From Bacillota bacterium (lineage in GTDB: Bacteria; Bacteroidota; Bacteroidia; Bacteroidales; Bacteroidaceae), in assembly GCA_023664625.1 (NCBI GenBank), contig JAMPFD010000004.1, positions 152,368-216,367 of the forward strand: a stretch of DNA of 64,000 nt. The letters run 5' to 3'. Shown here piece by piece: positions 9,657 to 63,834 of the stretch. The position numbers were made by a program, and so were the translations under genes. Under the pieces are notes generated by a model, which saw nothing but the letters and a program-made list of their open reading frames with translations, ran no database searches and had not been told where the DNA came from. Every line of letters starts with the position of its first letter. Within the stretch, counting starts at the first letter, position 1.

Positions 9657-10012
9657 AATATTTCATAATATAACTTGATTTTTCCAATAATCATTTTAAC
9701 ACATTTTACCCCCCTATTGATTATTAGCATTTATTAACAATATTTGATTCGTTTTTAGACAAGAGAGGAGTAAAATCCTGTAAATCACACCATCAATTAA
9801 CATCAATTAAAACGTATAAGTACACAACTGTCGCAATTATTGTACACACACCATTGTTTTCACATCAATATAACCGGATACTGACGGGGGCTCCACCAAC
9901 TGACAACGGCATTTTCCGGCATAGATCACACCCACACCTGCACCCGAGCGCAGCATCTTTCATAAAGCACTAATCATCAAACCAATAGCCAAAGCCATAA
10001 CTGTCCAAAAAC

Positions 10013-10095
10013 TAAAGGTTACCTTTTATGGTGTAAACCGTTACCTTTTGGCATGCGAACCGTTACCTTTCGTAAAGCAAAAGGTAACGGTTCGC
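10013..10095. repeat. 22-bp repeat array 1 with terminal hairpin
   Basis: Three 22-bp units start at 10013, 10035 and 10057. Units 2 and 3 share the core ACCGTTACCTTT, and unit 1 has AAAGGTTACCTTTT. An inverted copy follows at 10079-10095. The last unit and the inverted copy form a perfect 16-bp stem (10055-10070 with 10080-10095) around a 9-base loop. The same design recurs at 31195 and 63610. Confidence 0.8.
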
Positions 10096-10141
10096 TCTTG
10101 AGTTCACGGGCAAGGAACATTTCGCCCGTAAAGAAAAAGAC

Positions 10142-11183: not shown

Positions 11184-11642
11184 TTACTTGAAAAGTCGCA
11201 GGCCGCCACGGTCTTTTGTGACAGCATTGGTGTATGCTGCACGGAAAACCGGATTGCACCATACAGAATCATTGAGAGAATGGAAATTCTTGTACTTCGC
11301 AGGACGCCCGCTGACTGTCACGGACTTAATCTTCTTGTAGAAGACGTAATTGGTCTTCTCAATGACGTACTCTGCATCTACCAGCACATCATACTCCTTA
11401 CCGCTCTGGCTGAGAGCCTTGCGCTCCGCATCATGCTTGACATTGCTTATGCCTGCACGTTGTATGGCCTTGCTCGGATTGGTGGTGACAGTCACACGCT
11501 CGGGAGAAACTTCTAAGTCAGCGACAGTGGCGGAGAGCAGAGACGCACGTGCGTCTGCCGTGGAAGCGGTCTTGACAACTGTGGTACATGAGGCGAATGC
11601 GAGCGAAAGTGCAGCGCAGCATAGGAAAGTGAACTTTTTCAT
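11184..11642 (-). CDS. Small lipoprotein paralogous to the N-terminal half of its neighbour
   Basis: A 152-residue lipoprotein of unknown function. The start was set at 11642, giving MKKFTFLCCAALSLAFASC with a lipobox Cys at residue 19; the longer upstream frame has no signal sequence. Almost the whole mature protein aligns by eye with the N-terminal domain of the gene downstream, so the pair arose by duplication and only one member has the barrel. A TACCTTTG -7 element lies about 195 bases upstream at 11838-11845, implying a long leader. The two proteins may act together at the outer membrane; this is inference. Confidence 0.75.
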   Translation of the reverse strand: MKKFTFLCCAALSLAFASCTTVVKTASTADARASLLSATVADLEVSPERVTVTTNPSKAIQRAGISNVKHDAERKALSQSGKEYDVLVDAEYVIEKTNYVFYKKIKSVTVSGRPAKYKNFHSLNDSVWCNPVFRAAYTNAVTKDRGGLRLFK

Positions 11643-11837
11643 TTGTTGTGAAAATAATTGTGAGAATTGTGCGTCTCTTTTGTTCCTTTGCATCCATCCG
11701 AAAGGCAAGAGACGGCATCAGCCCGAGGAGAATGGCACATACGGCAGACTGTACCACCAGCTTCGTGTAAACGCCCGCGACAAGACATTCAGCATGAGGC
11801 GGACATACGGACCTCGTACAATATGCGATGGCAATTG

Positions 11838-11845
11838 CAAAGGTA
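11838..11845 (-). promoter_or_regulatory. -7 element of the paired lipoprotein operon
   Basis: TACCTTTG on the minus strand with a TTG about 16 bases further upstream. This is the only good promoter match between this operon and the HTH gene. Confidence 0.45.
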
Positions 11846-11909
11846 TATACATTTTTCATTACAAGTGTTAAATCCGTGTAGCGAACATTACTACATGTAG
11901 AGACATGCG

Positions 11910-12140
11910 CTACACTTTGCCGCTGTTTCCCTTAATCTTACGCTCCACTTCCTCACAATAGAGCTCAAAAAAATTATAGTTCATGATCGTGCATATACGT
12001 TCCAGCTGTAGAGTGTCTATGCTGTATTTCTCGAACAGATTATACACATTGGTGCGGTGACAGCCAAGCTCGCGTGCCAGCCACACAACGCTCTTGCCGT
12101 CTGCCTTCAGTTTCTGCTGCAGTATTTTTCCTATGTGCAT
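11910..12140 (-). CDS. Small XRE-like helix-turn-helix protein
   Basis: A 76-residue protein, MHIGKILQQK onward. Residues about 14-50 contain a helix-turn-helix (SVVWLARELGCHRTNVYNLF) of the XRE/lambda-repressor type, followed by a segment (LQLERICTIMNYNFFELY) that completes the five-helix fold. The upstream ATG at 12191 is rejected because a TACCTTTG -7 element at 12173-12180 lies inside that extension. The C-terminal tail is basic (VERKIKGNSGKV). Many Bacteroidales genomes carry such single-domain regulators. The target is unknown; the divergent side is a gene-free gap with a large inverted repeat. Confidence 0.75.
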   Translation of the reverse strand: MHIGKILQQKLKADGKSVVWLARELGCHRTNVYNLFEKYSIDTLQLERICTIMNYNFFELYCEEVERKIKGNSGKV

Positions 12141-14189: not shown

Positions 14190-15467
14190 TTAAAGGTCAG
14201 CACCAATGTCCGAACGGAAGTATTTCCCTTGGAATTTTATCTTCTGTGCTTCCTTGAAAGACTTGGCAAGAGCCTCTTCCTTGTCAGCACCATAAGAGGA
14301 CACTGCTATCACACGGCCGCCGGCAGTGACAACATCGCCGTCCTTCAACGCCGTACCTGAATGGAATACTATTGAGCCTTCGACTTCCTCTATGCCCGTG
14401 ATAGGGAAACCTTTCTCGTACTCCTGAGGATAGCCGCCTGACACCATCATGACACAAACTGCAGAACGCGGGTCGAACTCAATGGACTTTGTATCAAGAT
14501 TTCCTTCTGCAACACCTTCAAAAAGGTCAACGATATCTGATTTCAGGCGGAGCATCACACTTTCTGTCTCAGGGTCTCCCATACGGCAGTTGTACTCAAT
14601 CACCATCGGTTCTCCATTGACATTGATAAGCCCGAAGAAAATAAAGCCCTTGTAATCGATACCGTCAGCAGCAAGTCCGTTGACTGTCGGCCTGATAATG
14701 CGCTCCTCAACCTTTGCCATCCACTCAGGAGTAGCGAAAGGAACCGGAGTGACACTGCCCATGCCTCCTGTGTTCAGACCGGTGTCATGCTCACCTATGC
14801 GCTTGTAATCCTTTGCTTCAGGCAGTATCTTGTAGTTCTTTCCGTCAGTAAGAACAAAGACCGAGCATTCAATACCTGACAGGAACTCCTCTATCACGAC
14901 GCGTGATGAAGCATTGCCGAACATACCGCCAAGCATTTCTTTCAACTCTTTCTTGGCTTCCTCCAGTGTATCAAGTATAAGCACTCCCTTGCCGGCACAC
15001 AGGCCATCTGCCTTCAGCACATACGGTGCAGACAGGGTTTCAAGGAACTTACACCCCTCCTCAACCTGAGTGCCGTCGAAAGTTTCATAAGCCGCAGTAG
15101 GTATGTTGTGACGCTTCATGAAAGCTTTGGCAAAATCCTTTGAGCCCTCCAGGACCGCTCCGGCCTTTGAAGGACCGATGACAGGAACATCTTTTGTGCG
15201 GGGGTCGTTCTTCAAATCGTCATAAACGCCCTTCACCAAAGGATCCTCAGGTCCTACGACTACCATCGAGACATTATTCTCCACGATAAAATTCTTTATC
15301 GCTTCAAAGTCATCAGCTTTCATATCAACATTCATTCCCTTACCGCCGACACCCTCCGTGCCGGCATTTCCAGGTGCAATGAACAGTTTATCACACTTTG
15401 CGCTCTGCGCAATCTTCCAACCGATGGCGTGCTCGCGGCCGCCGGAACCTAATAAAAGTATATTCAT
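14190..15467 (-). CDS. purD: Phosphoribosylamine--glycine ligase
   Basis: A 425-residue ATP-grasp enzyme for the second step of purine synthesis: phosphoribosylamine plus glycine plus ATP gives GAR. It starts with the family signature [18 protein letters not shown]. The ATP-grasp region includes [16 protein letters not shown] and [15 protein letters not shown], and the metal-binding part is [11 protein letters not shown] near residue 290-300. The length is typical. It is the first gene of a run that continues into two membrane-protein genes. No other pur gene is in the window. Confidence 0.97.
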
Positions 15468-20351: not shown

Positions 20352-20606
20352 CTGCTTTTTTCGCTAATTTCAAAACATACACCACCTATTTTTATAAATA
20401 AGTGACCCAAATCAGTTTGACAATATTATACTCCCCTGCCTCCCCTGCGGGCGTATCGGCAGGATTCTGTCCGGGCATCTGCTCCAAAGGCCTTGGCGTA
20501 AAGATGTCAAAAAGGCAGAAGGCATGGATTAAAACACCGCAGGAAAAAGCGGCTTGATTTCCCGGTAATAACAGCCTGACTTCAAAAATCCGTCATACAA
20601 GAAAGC

Positions 20607-20694
20607 GAAAGATAACGGTTCGCAATGCAAAAGGTTACCTTTTAGAAGTCCAAAGGTTACCTTTTGCAACATAAATCGTCACCTTTTACGAAGC
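20607..20694. repeat. 22-bp repeat array 2, without a good terminal hairpin
   Basis: Four 22-bp units start at 20607, 20629, 20651 and 20673. The first is in the opposite orientation (AAAGATAACGGTT); the others carry AAGGTTACCTTTT or CGTCACCTTTT. This is the only array without a strong final hairpin, and it is the one in a divergent promoter region. Confidence 0.75.
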
Positions 20695-31060: not shown

Positions 31061-31194
31061 AAATCCGTACAGGCTGACCATACTTGAACGGCAGGCCGGA
31101 CAATAGACTTGCACAAAGAGCTGCACACGCCCATACAATACTGATACTCAACAAAATGCCCACGAGCGGAATCGTTCTCAAAAGAATAATTTGC

Positions 31195-31320
31195 GGAAGG
31201 TAACGATTTAGAATACGAAAGGTAACGGTTTGCAGTATAAAAGGTAACGGTTTACACAGCAAAAGGTAACGATTTAAAATACATGAGGTGACGGTCCGTT
31301 GTACAGACCGTCACCTCATG
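31195..31320. repeat. 22-bp repeat array 3 with terminal hairpin
   Basis: Five 22-bp units start at 31195, 31217, 31239, 31261 and 31283. The first four carry AAGGTAACG(A/G)TTT. The last is variant (ATGAGGTGACGGTC) and is followed by its exact inverted copy, giving a 15-bp perfect stem (31282-31296 with 31306-31320) and a 9-base loop. It sits between convergent genes. Confidence 0.85.
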
Positions 31321-31348
31321 CTTTCATCCACGATAGAACAGGAGAATT

Positions 31349-31412: not shown

Positions 31413-34361
31413 TTACATCATGCGGCGCGGAGGCATTCCTCCCCTGCCGCCGTCACGGCTGAAACGACGGTCGTTGAAGTCAGGCCTGCCGCCATCTCCG
31501 CCCCCTCCGCTGCGTGCGGCTTTCCCGCCGAAAGAGTTCACTTTATATATAAGGTGGAACATGACATAGGAGTTTATCGTGTTATATTCCGAGTCCGTAC
31601 GCTGTGTCGCCGAGATTGCACGGGAAAGGCTTGACTGCTTCTTAAGTATGTCATAGAACTGTACGGACAGAGTCAGCGGTTTGCCTTTTAGGAATGACTG
31701 CGATATCTGTGCGTTCCATACGAACTCATTTGTATTCAACGACGCATCGTTATATCCGCGGCGGGAATTCATGTGTGCATCCGTGGAGAATCCTGTTCCC
31801 CAAGGAGCCGTAACCGTCACGTTCATGCCGTAGTTGAAGTTCCATGTGTCAAGATTCGACTGCGACTGAAGAAGGTTGCGCGTATGCGCGAAGCGCAGTT
31901 GTCCGTTCGGCTCCACCTCAAGCCATGAGCTTCGGTAGCTGACGGACAGACGCTCACCGATTGTTGTGGAACGTGTCGTGTTCTTCATCGTCACATTATC
32001 CTGCATGAGATAGGACACATGGTTCTGATAGTTGATGTTTGTGAACGTATTGATGTTCCATACTCCGGCAGAATCTATGCTGCGGTTGTACATCAGCGCA
32101 CCGCTGAGATCCCAGTTGCCGTTGATGTTTTCCGGCTTTGTCTCTCTGCCGCCGGTAGCCTCGTTGTAGCGCACACAGCTGGCAATGCTGTTCTGGGTGA
32201 CGGAGAAATTTATATGCGTCATCCATGACTGGCTGTAGCTTGGAGCATAACCGTTATAGAACAGGCGGAAATTATGCTTGAACGACGGTTTCAGATCCGG
32301 ATTTCCGGTAGAGATGTTCAAAGGGTCGGAATCATCGCGGATGTCAAGCAGGTCGGTCATTGAAGGCTGGGTAGTCGTGGCACGGTATGTCGCACGCAAC
32401 TGGCTGACCTTGGAAATCTTGTAGCGCAAGTCAAGGGACGGCGCAAAGTTCACCACATTGCGTTTCACGACGGTATCCACACCCTGATATTTGTACTTCA
32501 AGGCTGTATGCTGAGGCTGGAACATGAAGCCTACGGTATAGTTCCATTTCTTTCCGATTTTTCTCAGCTGCAAGGCACCTTCATGAGTATAGGTGTCATA
32601 TTCTGACTTCTTTGAGAGCTCTTCGTCAAGATAATCCTCAATGTCGGGGTATCCGTTGAGACGGCCGAGATATGTCTCCCAATCCCTGTAGACCGGCATG
32701 ACAAGCTCATAACCTGTTATATTAGAATAGTCGTAAGTGCTGCGGTCACTCTTCGACTTAGAGTATTTGAACGAGTATGTTGCCTGCAGGAACATCTGCT
32801 TTCCCAAAGGCTCAGAGTATGTTCCTTTGAGAGTATAGCCGTATGTCTTTGTAGGAGTAAGGTTGTATCTGTTTATGCTGTATTCATTCTTGTTCACGTT
32901 GTCACCATTCGCAGCAAGATAGTCAAAGATTGTGACATCCTGGAGACTTGTGCTCTTGGAATCGCCGTCGCTGTAGTTGACATCCGCGCGGAATGTCACA
33001 TTACGCCCCCTGTTGCCAAGCTTACGGTTGAACTGGAACATGCCTGTCGCTTTCGTTGTCTTGCTGTATGACAGAGAGCTGGCTTTCTTTGAGTTCACCA
33101 GTTCGCCAAGCTGCTCAAGCTTTTCCATGCCCTCATCAGAGAGAGGGTCGCCGACACTTTCGTAAGGGTCGGCATTGAAGGTCGCATCCGCAGAACTTGA
33201 GGCATTGTCAGACTTGGAGATGGATACATTCGGACGGAACATGATGTTTGTCATCGTATCAGGAGACCATTCGAGGCGCATCTGTGCATTCCAGGAATCT
33301 CCGCGGGAGAAGGACTGCGAACGGGAATTGCCGAAGGACTGCACCGTACTGAGGAAGCTTTCCGTAGACTTGCTTGTCCATACGTCACTGTCACTGTGGT
33401 TCCAGCGCACGGAACCGTCAATGGTCAGAATCTTGGCATTCTGATAGTTCACGTTGAAGCCCAACATCTTACGTGCGCTGAGACCGTTGTTGACACCTCC
33501 GAAGCGCATACCGCCACCGCCTCCGGGGAAACCTTTGTCACCGGTATTGTTGGCACTTCCGAAACCCATAATCTTCAGATTATCCTTCATATATGCTACC
33601 ATGCCACGCTCGGCATAACGGCTGTCGGTACCTATGGCGAAGTCAAAATTTCCCATAAAGCCTTTATTCATACCGCGCTTGATACCGAAATCGAGGACAG
33701 TCTCCTCCTCTCCGTCGTCAATTCCTGTGACACGGGCGAGATCAGACTTACGGTCGTAGGACTTCACCTTATCAATAATGGAGGTAGGGAGATTCTTCAA
33801 GGCTGTCTCAGTATCACCTGTCATAAATTCCTTGCCGTCGACAAGAATCTTCTTCACCTCCTTGCCGTTCATGGTTATGGTACCGTCATCGCTGACCTGC
33901 GCACCGGGGAGGCGCTTCACCAGTTCTTCTATGACAGAGCCTTCGGGAGTATGATATGCTGCGGCGTTGTATACAAAGGTGTCCTCCTTGACAGTCATCT
34001 TTGCCGCCTGTCCGCTGACGATTGCTTCCTTGAGCATTACGGCATCAAGAGTCAGCATTATCTGACCGAGAGAGACATTAGTTCCTTTCACCTGTACAGG
34101 CTTGACGAGGGTCTTATAGCCCACACTTGTGACTTTCAGAAGATAGTTCCCGTCACTTGGAGCCGTTACCGTGAACTTACCGTCAATATCGGAGATGACT
34201 CCCTTGACAAAGGAGCTATCTCTTTTCAGCAGCGAGACAGTTGCCTGTGCGACACCGTCCTTAGTGTCTTTGTCAACGAATGTTCCGCTGACAGCTTTCT
34301 GTGCCATGACGTTTATGGCAGCAAAAAGGCAGATGAACATCAAAAAAAGTATTTTCTTCAT
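31413..34361 (-). CDS. TonB-receptor-like outer-membrane beta-barrel protein (OMP_b-brl_3 type)
   Basis: A 982-residue outer-membrane protein. The signal peptide (about 1-20, VMA) is followed by a carboxypeptidase-regulatory-like domain (about 22-107, AVSGTFVDKDTKDGVAQATV) and a plug domain (about 115-220, EELVKRLPGAQVSDDGTITMNG, ILVDGKEFMTGD). The rest is a long barrel of the kind found in TonB-dependent-receptor relatives without a SusD partner. Unusually the protein does not end on a barrel strand: the last 38 residues are Gly/Arg/Asp-rich (SGGGGDGGRPDFNDRRFSR and on to PPRRMM). It follows two pectinesterase genes on the same strand, but a terminator at 34371-34405 separates them. The substrate is unknown. 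Confidence 0.88.
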   Translation of the reverse strand: MKKILFLMFICLFAAINVMAQKAVSGTFVDKDTKDGVAQATVSLLKRDSSFVKGVISDIDGKFTVTAPSDGNYLLKVTSVGYKTLVKPVQVKGTNVSLGQIMLTLDAVMLKEAIVSGQAAKMTVKEDTFVYNAAAYHTPEGSVIEELVKRLPGAQVSDDGTITMNGKEVKKILVDGKEFMTGDTETALKNLPTSIIDKVKSYDRKSDLARVTGIDDGEEETVLDFGIKRGMNKGFMGNFDFAIGTDSRYAERGMVAYMKDNLKIMGFGSANNTGDKGFPGGGGGMRFGGVNNGLSARKMLGFNVNYQNAKILTIDGSVRWNHSDSDVWTSKSTESFLSTVQSFGNSRSQSFSRGDSWNAQMRLEWSPDTMTNIMFRPNVSISKSDNASSSADATFNADPYESVGDPLSDEGMEKLEQLGELVNSKKASSLSYSKTTKATGMFQFNRKLGNRGRNVTFRADVNYSDGDSKSTSLQDVTIFDYLAANGDNVNKNEYSINRYNLTPTKTYGYTLKGTYSEPLGKQMFLQATYSFKYSKSKSDRSTYDYSNITGYELVMPVYRDWETYLGRLNGYPDIEDYLDEELSKKSEYDTYTHEGALQLRKIGKKWNYTVGFMFQPQHTALKYKYQGVDTVVKRNVVNFAPSLDLRYKISKVSQLRATYRATTTQPSMTDLLDIRDDSDPLNISTGNPDLKPSFKHNFRLFYNGYAPSYSQSWMTHINFSVTQNSIASCVRYNEATGGRETKPENINGNWDLSGALMYNRSIDSAGVWNINTFTNINYQNHVSYLMQDNVTMKNTTRSTTIGERLSVSYRSSWLEVEPNGQLRFAHTRNLLQSQSNLDTWNFNYGMNVTVTAPWGTGFSTDAHMNSRRGYNDASLNTNEFVWNAQISQSFLKGKPLTLSVQFYDILKKQSSLSRAISATQRTDSEYNTINSYVMFHLIYKVNSFGGKAARSGGGGDGGRPDFNDRRFSRDGGRGGMPPRRMM

Positions 34362-43350: not shown

Positions 43351-44051
43351 ATTATATCTTGGTAGTTTCGTATTAATTGTCTTTCAATATTAAATTCACT
43401 GCCGGCGGCCTTATCCCATAATTCCTGCCTACAGTGCCGTCACGCATCGGTGCACGGAATCCGCATACCACTGCATACACACCTGTTGCGCAATCATCCG
43501 CAAATTTACTAACAAAAAGCACAATAAGCAACAAATGTTTACTTTATTTAACAAGAAGAATCCCATTTTACACCTATTTTCGGCAATTTTTCCACATTCC
43601 CCGCCTATCCGGAGTTGGAACAAAATAGGGTTTCAGAGCGGCAGATATGAGGTTTCCCTACCAAAGGTCTTCAGGTCGCAGGTCATGAATGGGAAAACTT
43701 GATGCTGAAGACCGTCAGTATAAGCAGGAACGCGAGACATTGCGTCCGCACATGACAGACACTGAGAAACACATGCCGGACTGAAAGGGAAACCACTAAG
43801 TCAGCTGCCACAGGAAACGGGAAAAGATAACCGCCTGAAAGGCACGACAGTGTTTTCGGCATAGACCAAATGTGCATTAGTTATTTAACCGCAAATAGAA
43901 AACTCTCCGTCTTTTTGGCCACTGAGAATCGAATAAAAACAAAATATGCAAAAGAAATCTTGAAATCCACAAAATTTCCAAGTGTCCGTAATAAGCTATC
44001 TTACAACGACTTATGACAGTTTACCCGTTTTTACATAACGAAATAACCCAT

Positions 44052-44134
44052 CAATCGTAACCTTTCACAGGACAAAAGGTTACACTTTGCAATGCGAAAC
44101 GTAAGGAAAAGCATGAAATTCCGTAACCTTTCGC
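44052..44134. repeat. 22-bp repeat array 4, degenerate
   Basis: Units start at 44052 (CGTAACCTTTC) and 44074 (AAAGGTTACACTTT). A decayed third unit at 44096 pairs partly with CCGTAACCTTTCGC ending at 44134. The stem GCGAAA/TTTCGC remains; the rest has mismatches. Confidence 0.65.
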
Positions 44135-44317
44135 ATAAAAAACAGACATTTTTTTGCTCTTCATAAGTTAAAAACAGGCAGAATATCCGGCCGGAGGAAG
44201 AAAAACAGACCGTAATTCTGCGATTATGATAAATAGAGCATTTGAAAACCCGGACAGAATATCCGGTGACTCCCTGCAATACCGTAAAGCAACAAGAACT
44301 TATTGAAAAGCTTATCT

Positions 44318-62082: not shown

Positions 62083-63174
62083 ATGCCAAAACATCTTATC
62101 CCCATATTGACAATCACCGGTTCTGACAGCACCAGCGGTGCCGGCATCCAAGCCGACATAAGAACCATCTCAGCCATGGGAGGCATGGCTTTCTCAACCA
62201 TCACTTCCATCACATCCCAGGATTCAAAAGGAATTCACAACATCCATGACCTCCCGGAAGAGATAGTTACAGGACAGCTTAGGGCACTGCTTAGAGATGT
62301 CCGTCCAAAAGCTGTAAAAGTGGGAATGATACGCAGCAGCAACATTGTCCGTGCCGTACGGAACGAGATTGTCGGATGCCGCAATATCGTCAGTGCCCCG
62401 GGCTTCCTTTCCTCACGCGGGGAAAGACTCATGGATAATGATACGATAGAGGAGTACATGCGCTCACTGTTTCCTGTAACACATATCCTCATACTAAAAT
62501 GCAGCGAAGCTGAACTCCTTTTCAACAAAAGCATAAACAGCAACGCAGAGATGCTGGAGACTGCCGCCCGCCTCCTTGACATGGGTCCACAGGCAGTATT
62601 CCTTCGCGGAGGCCACTGCACGGAAGGGCTTGTGACAGGACTCCTCGTCATCGCAGGAGACACCGGCAGACCGCGGTTCTTCACATCACCGAACAGAGAG
62701 GGGTGGGAGCTGCACGGCGTGGGAGGAACATTGTCTTCTGCCATAGCGACAAGGCTTGCCATGGGGGAAGATATACCTGTCGCCCTGTCGGCAGCACATA
62801 AGTACATACGCTGCCAGGTGGTCTATTCCGTAAGTTCCGCAAGCCACAGCCTCAGGCAGATGGAACTGTACAACCGCTTCATGGAACAGGTGACGGCACA
62901 CTGCAGAGAATCACGCGACACAGCATTCTATGCCTCACAGCTGAACATCACTCCCCGTTATCTTGCTGAAATCACACGCTACATAACAGGAAACAGCCCG
63001 AAACATCTCATTGCCGAATACCTTCTGAAAGAAATGGAGTCCTCCCTGCTTTCCACAGACAAGACCATACAGGAAATATCCATAGAGTTCGGATTCCCGT
63101 CACAGGCGGCACTCGCGAAATTCTTCAAGAAAAACCGTGGCATCTCTCCTTCCGAATTCCGTTCGGGAAAATAG
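62083..63174 (+). CDS. ThiD-like kinase domain fused to an AraC-type DNA-binding domain
   Basis: A 363-residue fusion. Residues 1 to about 245 are a ThiD/PdxK-like ribokinase fold: GSDSTSGAGIQAD (13-25) keeps the substrate-binding site, and RGGH (175-178) is kept. Three motifs are altered: DPVM of ThiD reads APGF (105-108), TPN near the nucleotide site reads LKC (138-140), and GTGC of the catalytic anion hole reads GVGG (212-215), losing the Cys. Residues about 280-363 are an AraC helix-turn-helix domain ending in the signature EISIEFGFPSQAALAKFFKK and ISPSEFR. The kinase domain probably binds a pyrimidine or pyridoxal-type ligand as a sensor. It lies 135 bases after fucP on the same strand. 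Confidence 0.88.
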   Translation: MPKHLIPILTITGSDSTSGAGIQADIRTISAMGGMAFSTITSITSQDSKGIHNIHDLPEEIVTGQLRALLRDVRPKAVKVGMIRSSNIVRAVRNEIVGCRNIVSAPGFLSSRGERLMDNDTIEEYMRSLFPVTHILILKCSEAELLFNKSINSNAEMLETAARLLDMGPQAVFLRGGHCTEGLVTGLLVIAGDTGRPRFFTSPNREGWELHGVGGTLSSAIATRLAMGEDIPVALSAAHKYIRCQVVYSVSSASHSLRQMELYNRFMEQVTAHCRESRDTAFYASQLNITPRYLAEITRYITGNSPKHLIAEYLLKEMESSLLSTDKTIQEISIEFGFPSQAALAKFFKKNRGISPSEFRSGK

Positions 63175-63609
63175 TTTTAGAGAGAGAGACTGTGTGTGTG
63201 GGGGGGGATACAGTGGAAGGTTATAGGTTATGGGGCGGTTATACGGATATAGGGTGTACAGCTATGTAGACAGTGAGGATACTCTGCGACATACTGTATA
63301 GTGACGCACCACGCTCATCAGCAATAAACGTATTCTCCGTGCGGAAGAACCGCGGCAGCGGTTGAATAAGGTTGCCGTGGGTCGCAACCCACGGAACATG
63401 CAACAGGGCTCTATACACGACCGGTTTATCGGTCGAATGGGGATATGTGAGAGGATGAAATTTCTGTACAAGTTTTCAAATACGCTATTTATCATAATGG
63501 GAAAAAACAGGATGCCACAAATGTTTTTTTACTTTTTCTACAGCGTGACATACTGATAAATATGACAAAAATACGCTTTCCTAACGCAAAGTATGACGAT
63601 TTACTGTTC

Positions 63610-63691
63610 AAACCGTCACACTTTAGATTTCAAACCATAACCTTTCACTGACGAAACCGTTACCATTTGCACCATAAATGGTAACGGTTTC
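63610..63691. repeat. 22-bp repeat array 5 with terminal hairpin
   Basis: Three units start at 63610, 63632 and 63654 (AAACCGTCAC, AAACCATAACC, AAACCGTTACCATTT). The last is followed by its inverted copy, giving a 16-bp perfect stem (63653-63668 with 63676-63691) and a 7-base loop. Confidence 0.85.
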
Positions 63692-63834
63692 TCTTTCATC
63701 CCCACCTGCCTTCCACAGAAAACACTGATTATCAAGACACTCGCGTAAAACACAAAAACAATCGTTTTTGAGAAATTATGGCATAAATTTTATTTTACGC
63801 TATTCTACAAAGGCAAAATGTCTGTGAGTTTTCT

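What the first reader, a model, noticed from the sequence alone, without database searches (positions are those of the whole stretch)
31195..31320. 22-bp repeat array ending in a hairpin whose arms have changed together
Seen directly: four near-identical 22-bp units with an AAGGTAACG(A/G)TTT core, then a fifth unit with changed bases (GAGGTGACGGTC) followed by its exact inverted copy. The last unit departs from consensus at several positions, yet both arms stay fully complementary over 15 bp. The same pattern holds at 63610-63691 with different changes. Such covariation points to selection for the stem or to copying of one arm from the other. The 22-bp period equals about two helical turns, which would place a bound protein on one DNA face. 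I know of no described element with this layout; possibilities are a protein-binding array, a nucleoid or terminus site, a REP-like element or an RNA. The element lies only between genes here.
Basis: partly seen in the sequence, partly recalled or inferred. Interest (0 to 1): 0.82.

Follow-up and report, generated by a model that had tools for sequence, protein, structure and literature searches.

The report
Spaced four-palindrome chromosome arrays
The 22-bp repeats belong to a large set of compact, protein-binding-like palindrome arrays scattered between genes along the chromosomes of Prevotella-type gut bacteria, with a layout shared between species but a recognition sequence that differs from species to species, which points to an undescribed chromosome-marking system or a much-domesticated mobile element.

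Summary
The array is real and one of 42 in the 759 kb of this genome that I read. Each unit is a 21-bp near-palindrome (TGCAAAAGGTNACCTTTTGCA); strong neighbouring units are 22 bp apart in 80 of 80 pairs; four units is the commonest number (27 of 42). The 'inverted copy' mostly reflects palindromic units; there is no general stem covariation, only a tail of perfect inverted and direct neighbours. The window's units 5-6 form a terminator-like hairpin.

Arrays are intergenic, little affected by gene direction, with short gaps between them depleted, and 4 of 5 recur at orthologous places in Palleniella intestinalis. A consensus-free scan finds the layout in 15 of 34 other Prevotellaceae loci, with differing cores, and 0 of 25 others. 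A late check changed my view: many arrays sit in a larger dispersed element with directly repeated boxes at fixed distances.

Best reading: four dimers of an unidentified protein form a block at chromosomal stations, whose specificity turns over between species. Strong rival: a MITE-like family with insertion spacing. The protein was not found; Lrp/AsnC is unlikely to read the core.

The parts
31192..31279 (.). array units 1-4 of the reported site, 22 bp centre to centre
31280..31322 (.). degenerate units 5-6, in phase, perfectly complementary over 15 bp; terminator-like hairpin read on the minus strand (stem 31321-31281, tail ATTTTAAATC)
   Evidence: -29.6 kcal/mol, z -6.11
10010..10096 (.). 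four-unit array between two minus-strand genes; last pair has 16-bp perfect inverted arms
20604..20690 (.). four-unit array in a divergent gap; the same gap holds a four-unit array in P. muris, P. intestinalis and MAG SC0317
44049..44135 (.). weaker four-unit array (score 47.8)
63585..63693 (.). array of four clear units and a weak first one; last pair has 16-bp perfect inverted arms

Best explanation
Each array is a double-stranded DNA site, usually four complete 21-bp palindromes with centres 22 bp (two helical turns) apart. Each palindrome can hold one protein dimer, so four neighbouring dimers sit on one face and make a block of about 87 bp. In part of the copies the block is the middle of a larger intergenic station of about 350-440 bp with a directly repeated box on either side at fixed distances (about 104 bp plus multiples of 22 on one side, 142-144 bp on the other). 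I think these stations act as architectural points of the core chromosome (domain borders, bridging or anchoring points) and that the binding protein and its sites drift together, so that each species ends with its own core while the layout stays. Shown: layout, dyad symmetry, edges, intergenic placement, depletion of short gaps, kept places with changed letters, different cores in different species, shared flanks in part of the copies. Inferred: that a protein binds, that it is a dimer, and the architectural role. Unknown: the protein, and how the element spread.
For: Exact phase 80 of 80 and 53 of 53 strong neighbour pairs. Sequence information ends about 9 bases from the outermost unit's centre in G000, less sharply in the other genomes. 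Four units in 27 of 42 arrays here and 41 of 50 in P. intestinalis. Strong single units hardly occur outside arrays: 2 outside against 114 inside, 1 against 123, 3 against 90. 126 of 127 arrays outside called genes. Short gaps (<0.4 of the mean) depleted in five of five stretches, P 0.035, 0.0008, 0.025, 0 of 4000, 0.0015. Orthologous gaps G000-P. intestinalis: both 4, one only 3, neither 46, P 0.00025, and where departing halves of the species-typical kinds occur in these pairs they follow the species (AACCGT here, AAGTGT there; three of four pairs, few counts). Consensus-free scan: period 22 in 15 of 34 Prevotellaceae loci, next best period 3; 0 of 16 other Bacteroidota and 0 of 9 others. 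Right-hand box at 144-145 bp in the 12 printed of 19 two-box arrays of G016 and 142-144 in 5 of 5 of G000 although its letters differ.
Against: No binding protein identified and no binding shown. Flank homology (28 of 36 arrays in G016, 18 of 36 here, 18 of 50 in P. intestinalis) and near-identical pairs (86% over 433 bp) show that at least some copies spread by duplication or transposition. The spacing is not a fixed period: the coefficient of variation is below expectation in only two of five stretches, and with the within-50%-of-median measure P is 0.05, 0.09, 0.04, 0.002, 0. One array-free gap of 70 kb in P. intestinalis holds core metabolism genes. H. timonensis shows no array in 120 kb, so the system is dispensable.
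Confidence: 0.42

Rival explanations
1. A family of small non-autonomous mobile elements (MITE-like, or moved by a site-specific recombinase, the boxes being its directly repeated ends). The array would be the recombinase's binding region, the spacing would come from insertion immunity plus loss of harmful insertions, and each species' core would be its own element family.
For: Shared flanks that stop at about 125 and 175 bp in G016, one pair alignable from box to box and not beyond, directly repeated boxes at fixed distances, pairs of high identity. I recall that the right end of Tn7 holds four 22-bp TnsB sites in about 90 bp and that Tn7 shows target immunity.
Against: Arrays recur at orthologous places with changed letters but kept phase; most arrays here (23 of 36) have no box on either side, and 5 have both, while the array itself is kept; a prophage, a conjugative element and an island lack arrays; in-frame array identity in G000 equals that of shuffled units.
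Confidence: 0.28
2. Self-marking: the arrays tell the cell's own chromosome from incoming DNA, for instance by stopping a translocating nuclease or loop-extruding defence complex. Antagonism with mobile DNA would explain the turnover of the core.
For: Depleted short gaps, absence from the three mobile regions looked at, species-specific cores, none in viral contigs by one strict pattern.
Against: Array-free gaps of up to 93 kb are tolerated; the core heptamer is not avoided elsewhere in the genome (123 seen, 117.7 expected here); no defence partner shown.
Confidence: 0.12
3. Transcription-linked elements: terminators, insulators or RNA hairpins between operons.
For: In tandem gaps arrays are nearer the upstream gene's end: 19 of 26, 22 of 28 and 16 of 24. 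The window hairpin looks like a terminator.
Against: In G000 tandem, divergent and convergent gaps are used as background predicts, 26:7:7 against 0.67:0.16:0.16; divergent gaps are somewhat low in P. intestinalis (5 of 47) and G016 (4 of 36). One array lies between murD and an ftsW-like gene. Units are symmetric, with no general stem covariation.
Confidence: 0.08
4. Wrapping sites for an octameric Lrp/AsnC-type regulator.
For: Four dimers at two helical turns suit an octamer (recalled). All 15 genomes tested have one to three AsnC_trans_reg proteins.
Against: In each orthologous group the region that I take for the recognition helix is near-invariant between genomes with different cores (29 of 34 matches aligned, so the G000 member of one group is missing). 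H. timonensis keeps two such proteins without arrays in 120 kb.
Confidence: 0.05

Closest known systems
BrickBuilt MITE of Porphyromonas gingivalis (PMC4596501; abstract and one results section read)
   Same: Intergenic tandem repeats of 22-23 bp, in part of the copies with conserved flanks on both sides, in a related order of bacteria
   Different: BrickBuilt has 19 copies, 1 to 22.8 direct 23-nt repeats and a leader and tail with small inverted ends; here four to six palindromes, an estimated 150-300 copies per genome, directly repeated boxes, depleted short gaps and species-specific cores
matS/MatP, parS/ParB, SlmA and Noc binding sites (recalled)
   Same: Palindromic chromosomal sites of one DNA-binding protein, used for chromosome organisation
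   Different: Those are single palindromes in limited regions or numbers; here fixed four-palindrome blocks along the stretches read, with a core that differs between related species
Tn7 ends with 22-bp TnsB sites (recalled)
   Same: Four 22-bp binding sites in about 90 bp; target immunity would space copies
   Different: TnsB sites are direct, not palindromic; no Tn7-type ends or transposase were looked for
REP/BIME elements (recalled)
   Same: Intergenic palindromes in hundreds of copies
   Different: REPs are hairpins without a fixed 22-bp phase; here no general stem covariation
Plasmid iterons (recalled)
   Same: Phased repeats of 17-22 bp
   Different: Iterons are direct repeats at one replication origin; here palindromes at many chromosomal places

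Membership tests
MITE / BrickBuilt-like element | Copies homologous over a bounded length beyond the repeats | tested here: inconclusive
   28 of 36 (G016), 18 of 36 (G000), 18 of 50 (P. intestinalis) arrays have some flank homology; bounded in one aligned pair; absent for many
MITE / BrickBuilt-like element | Terminal inverted repeats and target-site duplication | not tested
   The boxes found are directly repeated; duplications were not examined
MITE / BrickBuilt-like element | Cognate transposase or recombinase in the genome | not tested
   Whole proteomes were not available
REP/BIME | Conserved stem-loop with compensatory changes | tested here: not met
   only a tail of perfect pairs
Rfam RNA family | Match to a covariance model at gathering threshold | tested here: not met
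   window only
Intrinsic terminator (window units 5-6 only) | GC-rich stem followed by a T-rich tail downstream of a gene | tested here: met
   (1 found, 0.4 expected in shuffles); by sequence only
Intrinsic terminator (arrays in general) | Excess downstream of genes, lack in divergent gaps | tested here: inconclusive
   divergent gaps used (7 of 40, 5 of 47, 4 of 36), yet tandem arrays lie nearer the upstream gene's end
Restriction-modification target | Core avoided elsewhere in the genome | tested here: not met
   123 seen and 117.7 expected (G000), 93 and 105.6 (P. intestinalis), 32 and 32.6 (G016)
Lrp/AsnC (FFRP) sites | DNA-reading helix changes with the site core | tested here: not met
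   it could still read the conserved TGCAA rim
matS/parS-type organising site | Known cognate protein binds the site | not testable with these tools
   needs binding experiments
Iteron origin | Direct repeats confined to an origin with a Rep gene | tested here: not met
   Units are palindromic and 42 arrays are spread over 759 kb; Rep genes were not sought

The most novel reading that the evidence does not exclude
Prevotellaceae carry a system of chromosomal stations: fixed blocks of four palindromic dimer sites, in part framed by directly repeated boxes at set distances, roughly every 8-15 kb of the core chromosome, read by a fast-evolving protein whose specificity is private to each species, so that the chromosome is both divided into domains and marked as self.
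Probability: 0.22. Interest if true: 0.95.

Novelty: categorically new. Interest (0 to 1): 0.81.

Why it matters
Fixed, readable stations along a bacterial chromosome would make domain organisation directly testable in an abundant gut family. The change of core between related species with an unchanged layout asks how a protein and one or two hundred of its sites change together, a question usually put for transcription factors and centromeres. If the mobile-element rival is right, it would instead be a MITE-like family with an internal binding array and spaced insertions, a new variant of a known kind and still unusual. Species-private marks could bear on barriers to gene transfer.

Tried and rejected
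Stem/RNA reading: no general covariation by permutation across 27 arrays. The tail of perfect pairs is read as local copying; one array (C22 214027) is a long hairpin of all four units (seen), and its orthologue in P. intestinalis is not.

'Arrays are unrelated in flank': I believed this, which compared only in-frame 87-bp arrays and ungapped flanks, and in which flank identity up to 0.93 (G016), 0.90 (P. intestinalis) and 0.81 (G010) already spoke against it. I therefore lowered the station reading (from about 0.5 in my draft to 0.42) and the novel case (0.25 to 0.22), and raised the mobile-element reading to 0.28. In one search the test box for G016 is A/T-rich and one letter-shuffle reached 15 two-sided arrays (mean 1.4) against 19 observed, so the exact distance is the stronger evidence; for G000 shuffles gave at most 0 against 5. 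The boxes are not established in P. intestinalis (1 of 49 with either box) or G010 (0 and 1 of 20).

Strict period of spacing: not supported, only depletion of short gaps. Restriction target: not met. Lrp/AsnC: see rivals (one search was a script error, repeated; L287 was left out as truncated and four matches had no locus). A gap of P. intestinalis (C10 125-217 kb) and an island of G000 (C11 18-83 kb) were called mobile from few proteins each. The comparison of a P. intestinalis array with its array-free G000 gap was inconclusive. Genomes with many model matches were mostly not read.

Literature: ten full-text searches. Searches returned no papers; the listings of 25, 84, 85 and 96 showed none on this element; 14 was a search for the letters (18 papers, titles on other subjects); one found BrickBuilt. 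PMC8040213 was read in passages. No preprints or most subscription papers are held, so absence in print is not established.

Rows dropped: A1 used 26 of 33 G000 arrays of four or more units (one crossed a piece border, six weaker ones left out). A3 used 21 G000, 17 G010 and 25 of 36 G016 arrays. G010 pieces were chosen at model matches, so its counts are not a random sample and the P. intestinalis-G010 comparison (both 2, one only 2, neither 14, P 0.056) is biased; the other pairs had too few regions. One search used arrays of score >=25, >=40 (except G016). Model searches of more than 40 genomes scored a capped number of candidates and counted both strands. Of 63 loci the consensus-free scan used all: 4 Palleniella-type, 34, 16 and 9, grouped by me from record titles; at the looser scores 105 and 110 other Bacteroidota show 2 of 16 at period 22, no more than at other periods.

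Full report
OBSERVATION. The reported array is as described, and the second site too. The window lies in a 2.87-Mb genome of 32 contigs; in a scan with one neighbouring protein the closest named records are Palleniella muris and P. intestinalis (90% identity over 610 aa). AAAGGTAACGGTTT with up to two mismatches occurs 345 times in the genome against 58 for the reversed pattern.

ANATOMY. In 759 kb (C11, C22, window) the hits share one phase: same-direction starts are 22 apart, minus-plus 23, plus-minus 21, so the true centre of each unit is the middle base of AAAGGTNACCTTT and centres are 22 apart. A palindromic weight matrix finds 42 arrays of two or more units: 6 with two, 3 with three, 27 with four, 5 with five, 1 with six; 4 further calls are single units. 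All 80 pairs of strong neighbouring units within 40 bp in G000 and all 53 in G016 are exactly 22 bp apart. An alignment of 26 arrays is gapless. Sequence information falls to near zero from 10 bases outside the outermost centre in G000, less sharply in the other three genomes. Strong single units outside arrays are rare: 2, 1 and 3 against 114, 123 and 90 inside, with 2, 5 and 0 in reversed sequence. In G000 the commonest departing half is AACCGT (41 of 316 half-sites), in P. intestinalis AAGTGT (58 of 408; AACCGT 8); units of two AGG halves are rarer than independence predicts, 27 against 35.6 and 39 against 55.1.

THE HAIRPIN. Across 27 four-unit arrays neighbouring units are no more complementary to each other than to units of other arrays; small core-only signals exist for some unit pairs. 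There is a tail of perfect neighbours: inverted arms of 15 bp or more in 9 of 118 pairs, 1.13 expected; direct identity of 14 bp or more in 10, 2.06 expected. I read this as local copying. The window's units 5-6 belong to that tail and form a terminator-like hairpin on the minus strand, downstream of the outer-membrane-protein gene 31413-34361 (family).

PLACEMENT. Arrays overlap a called gene in 0 of 41 (G000), 1 of 50 (P. intestinalis) and 0 of 36 (G016); my gene caller is simple. Context tandem:divergent:convergent is 26:7:7 against background 0.67:0.16:0.16, 28:5:14 against 0.58:0.18:0.23, and 24:4:8 against 0.69:0.18:0.13. Short gaps between arrays are depleted in five of five stretches; median gaps are 15.2, 14.5, 12.4, 12.3 and 8.4 kb. 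The coefficient of variation is significantly low in two of five. Some of the largest array-free gaps look mobile: a Mu-like prophage in G016 (transposase, terminase, portal and tail families), a TraG-bearing stretch in P. intestinalis, and a stretch of G000 with a type I restriction system and a DUF3584 protein. Another, of 70 kb, carries glutamate synthase and a phosphorylase.

EVOLUTION. The gap upstream of the transporter at the window's 20.6-kb site holds a four-unit array in P. muris, P. intestinalis and MAG SC0317, with letters changed and phase kept; MAG RGIG4051 has one about 1.6 kb from the gene start. Over 53 orthologous gaps between G000 and P. intestinalis both have an array in 4, one only in 3, neither in 46. 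An array next to the gene called SecA in G000 has a counterpart next to the best-hit partner in P. intestinalis, and the P. intestinalis one in turn in G010; another lies between murD and an ftsW-like gene (best ftsW match below its cut-off) in P. intestinalis and between their best-hit partners in G010. P. intestinalis has exactly four units in 41 of 50 arrays. G016, without a match to the G000 model, has 36 arrays in 400 kb built on TGCAATTTGASTCAAATTGCA: 9 with four, 16 with five, 11 with six units, none in reversed sequence. X. muris has 3-4 arrays of another core in 120 kb, G024 one clear array in 160 kb.

RANGE. The G000 model hits 27 of 120 genomes of the GTDB genus, 12 with 25 or more matches, and 13 of 38 genomes behind named loci. 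A mixed model hits 18 of 36 same-genus genomes and 0 of 24 from other families, 14 of 201 in the family, six of these from other genera with one or two weak matches, and 2 of 198 in the phylum, this genome included. Because such models miss other cores I used a consensus-free scan (dyad symmetry plus unit similarity, four units, fixed period). At score 114 period 22 is found in 15 of 34 Prevotellaceae loci, the next best period in 3; other Bacteroidota 0 of 16 and non-Bacteroidota 0 of 9; the four Palleniella-type loci have one each. It recovers 30 of 33, 44 of 46, 22 of 36 and 20 of 20 known arrays. Cores differ, for instance AAACGGNCCGTTT-like (L134, L143), TTGTAAC-GTTACAA (L141), GATATGG-CCATATC (L137) and TGAATAG-CTATTCA (X. 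muris L133), several with the rim TGCAA...TTGCA. H. timonensis shows none in 120 kb, of which 5,574 are N.

With 200 bp of flank, many array pairs match beyond the array: in G016 55 of 88 array pairs with a hit reach more than 25 bp into the flank, in G000 6 of 223, in P. intestinalis 13 of 633, in G010 6 of 140. With coding sequence masked and 700 bp of flank, 28 of 36 arrays in G016, 18 of 36 in G000 and 18 of 50 in P. intestinalis share some intergenic flank with another array region; in G016 the coverage falls after about 125 bp on one side and 175 bp on the other. Nine-mers in the flanks sit at set distances: in G016 ATTTGTAAA at 143 bp and, on the other side, its like in the same reading direction at about 106; in G000 GAGTTTTCT at 141-144 and, on the other side, GAAAACTCA read outward at about 109. 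Directly repeated boxes on both sides are found in 19 of 36 arrays of G016 and 5 of 36 of G000, with the right-hand box at 144-145 bp (12 printed of 19) and 142-144, and the left-hand distance in G016 mostly in steps of 22 (104, 126, 148). One pair aligns from box to box and not beyond. The reported array at 31192 is not among those with boxes on both sides.

MECHANISM. The economical reading of the array is a DNA site for four side-by-side dimers. The role is inferred from distribution alone. In-place change of letters with kept phase, and absence of strong single sites, argue for a protein that still needs the arrays; shared flanks and boxes argue that the element once moved or was copied. 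Both can be true: a spread element whose array was kept for the host. I give 0.42 to the station, 0.28 to the mobile family. Copy numbers per genome (about 160 here, 220 in P. intestinalis, 285 in G016) are extrapolations from the stretches read.

LITERATURE. Ten searches of the held open-access library gave no description that I could recognise (calls listed under Tried and rejected); BrickBuilt of P. gingivalis (PMC4596501; abstract and one section read) is the nearest in print that I saw.

Noticed in passing
G016 pieces: L123 about 14755-15033 and L127 about 11638-11933: GC-rich tandem repeats of 44 bp (CTCCCCTCCTTGGGAGGGG type) in intergenic DNA, a different repeat kind; one such stretch also lies beside an array element.
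   Followed up: no
window 62083-63174: A phosphomethylpyrimidine-kinase-like protein with an AraC-type helix-turn-helix domain at its C-terminus, an unusual fusion to my knowledge.
   Followed up: no
G000 C11 about 18-83 kb (L045-L047): Array-free island with type I restriction genes and a DUF3584 (JetC-like, weak PADLOC match) protein.
   Followed up: partly
P. intestinalis L246 5630-5716 and G010 L198 10266-10352: An array inside a cell-wall gene cluster, between murD and an ftsW-like gene, in two distant species.
   Followed up: partly
window 63825-63833: TGAGTTTTC, the G000 flank box, stands about 131 bp beyond the 63.6-kb array instead of the usual 142-144 (read; motif).
   Followed up: no
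genomes G186, G237, G224, G194, G193, G216, G250, G354: One to three weak array matches per genome to the mixed model; G186 and G237 both near 1.21 Mb of a contig. Single old sites or chance.
   Followed up: no
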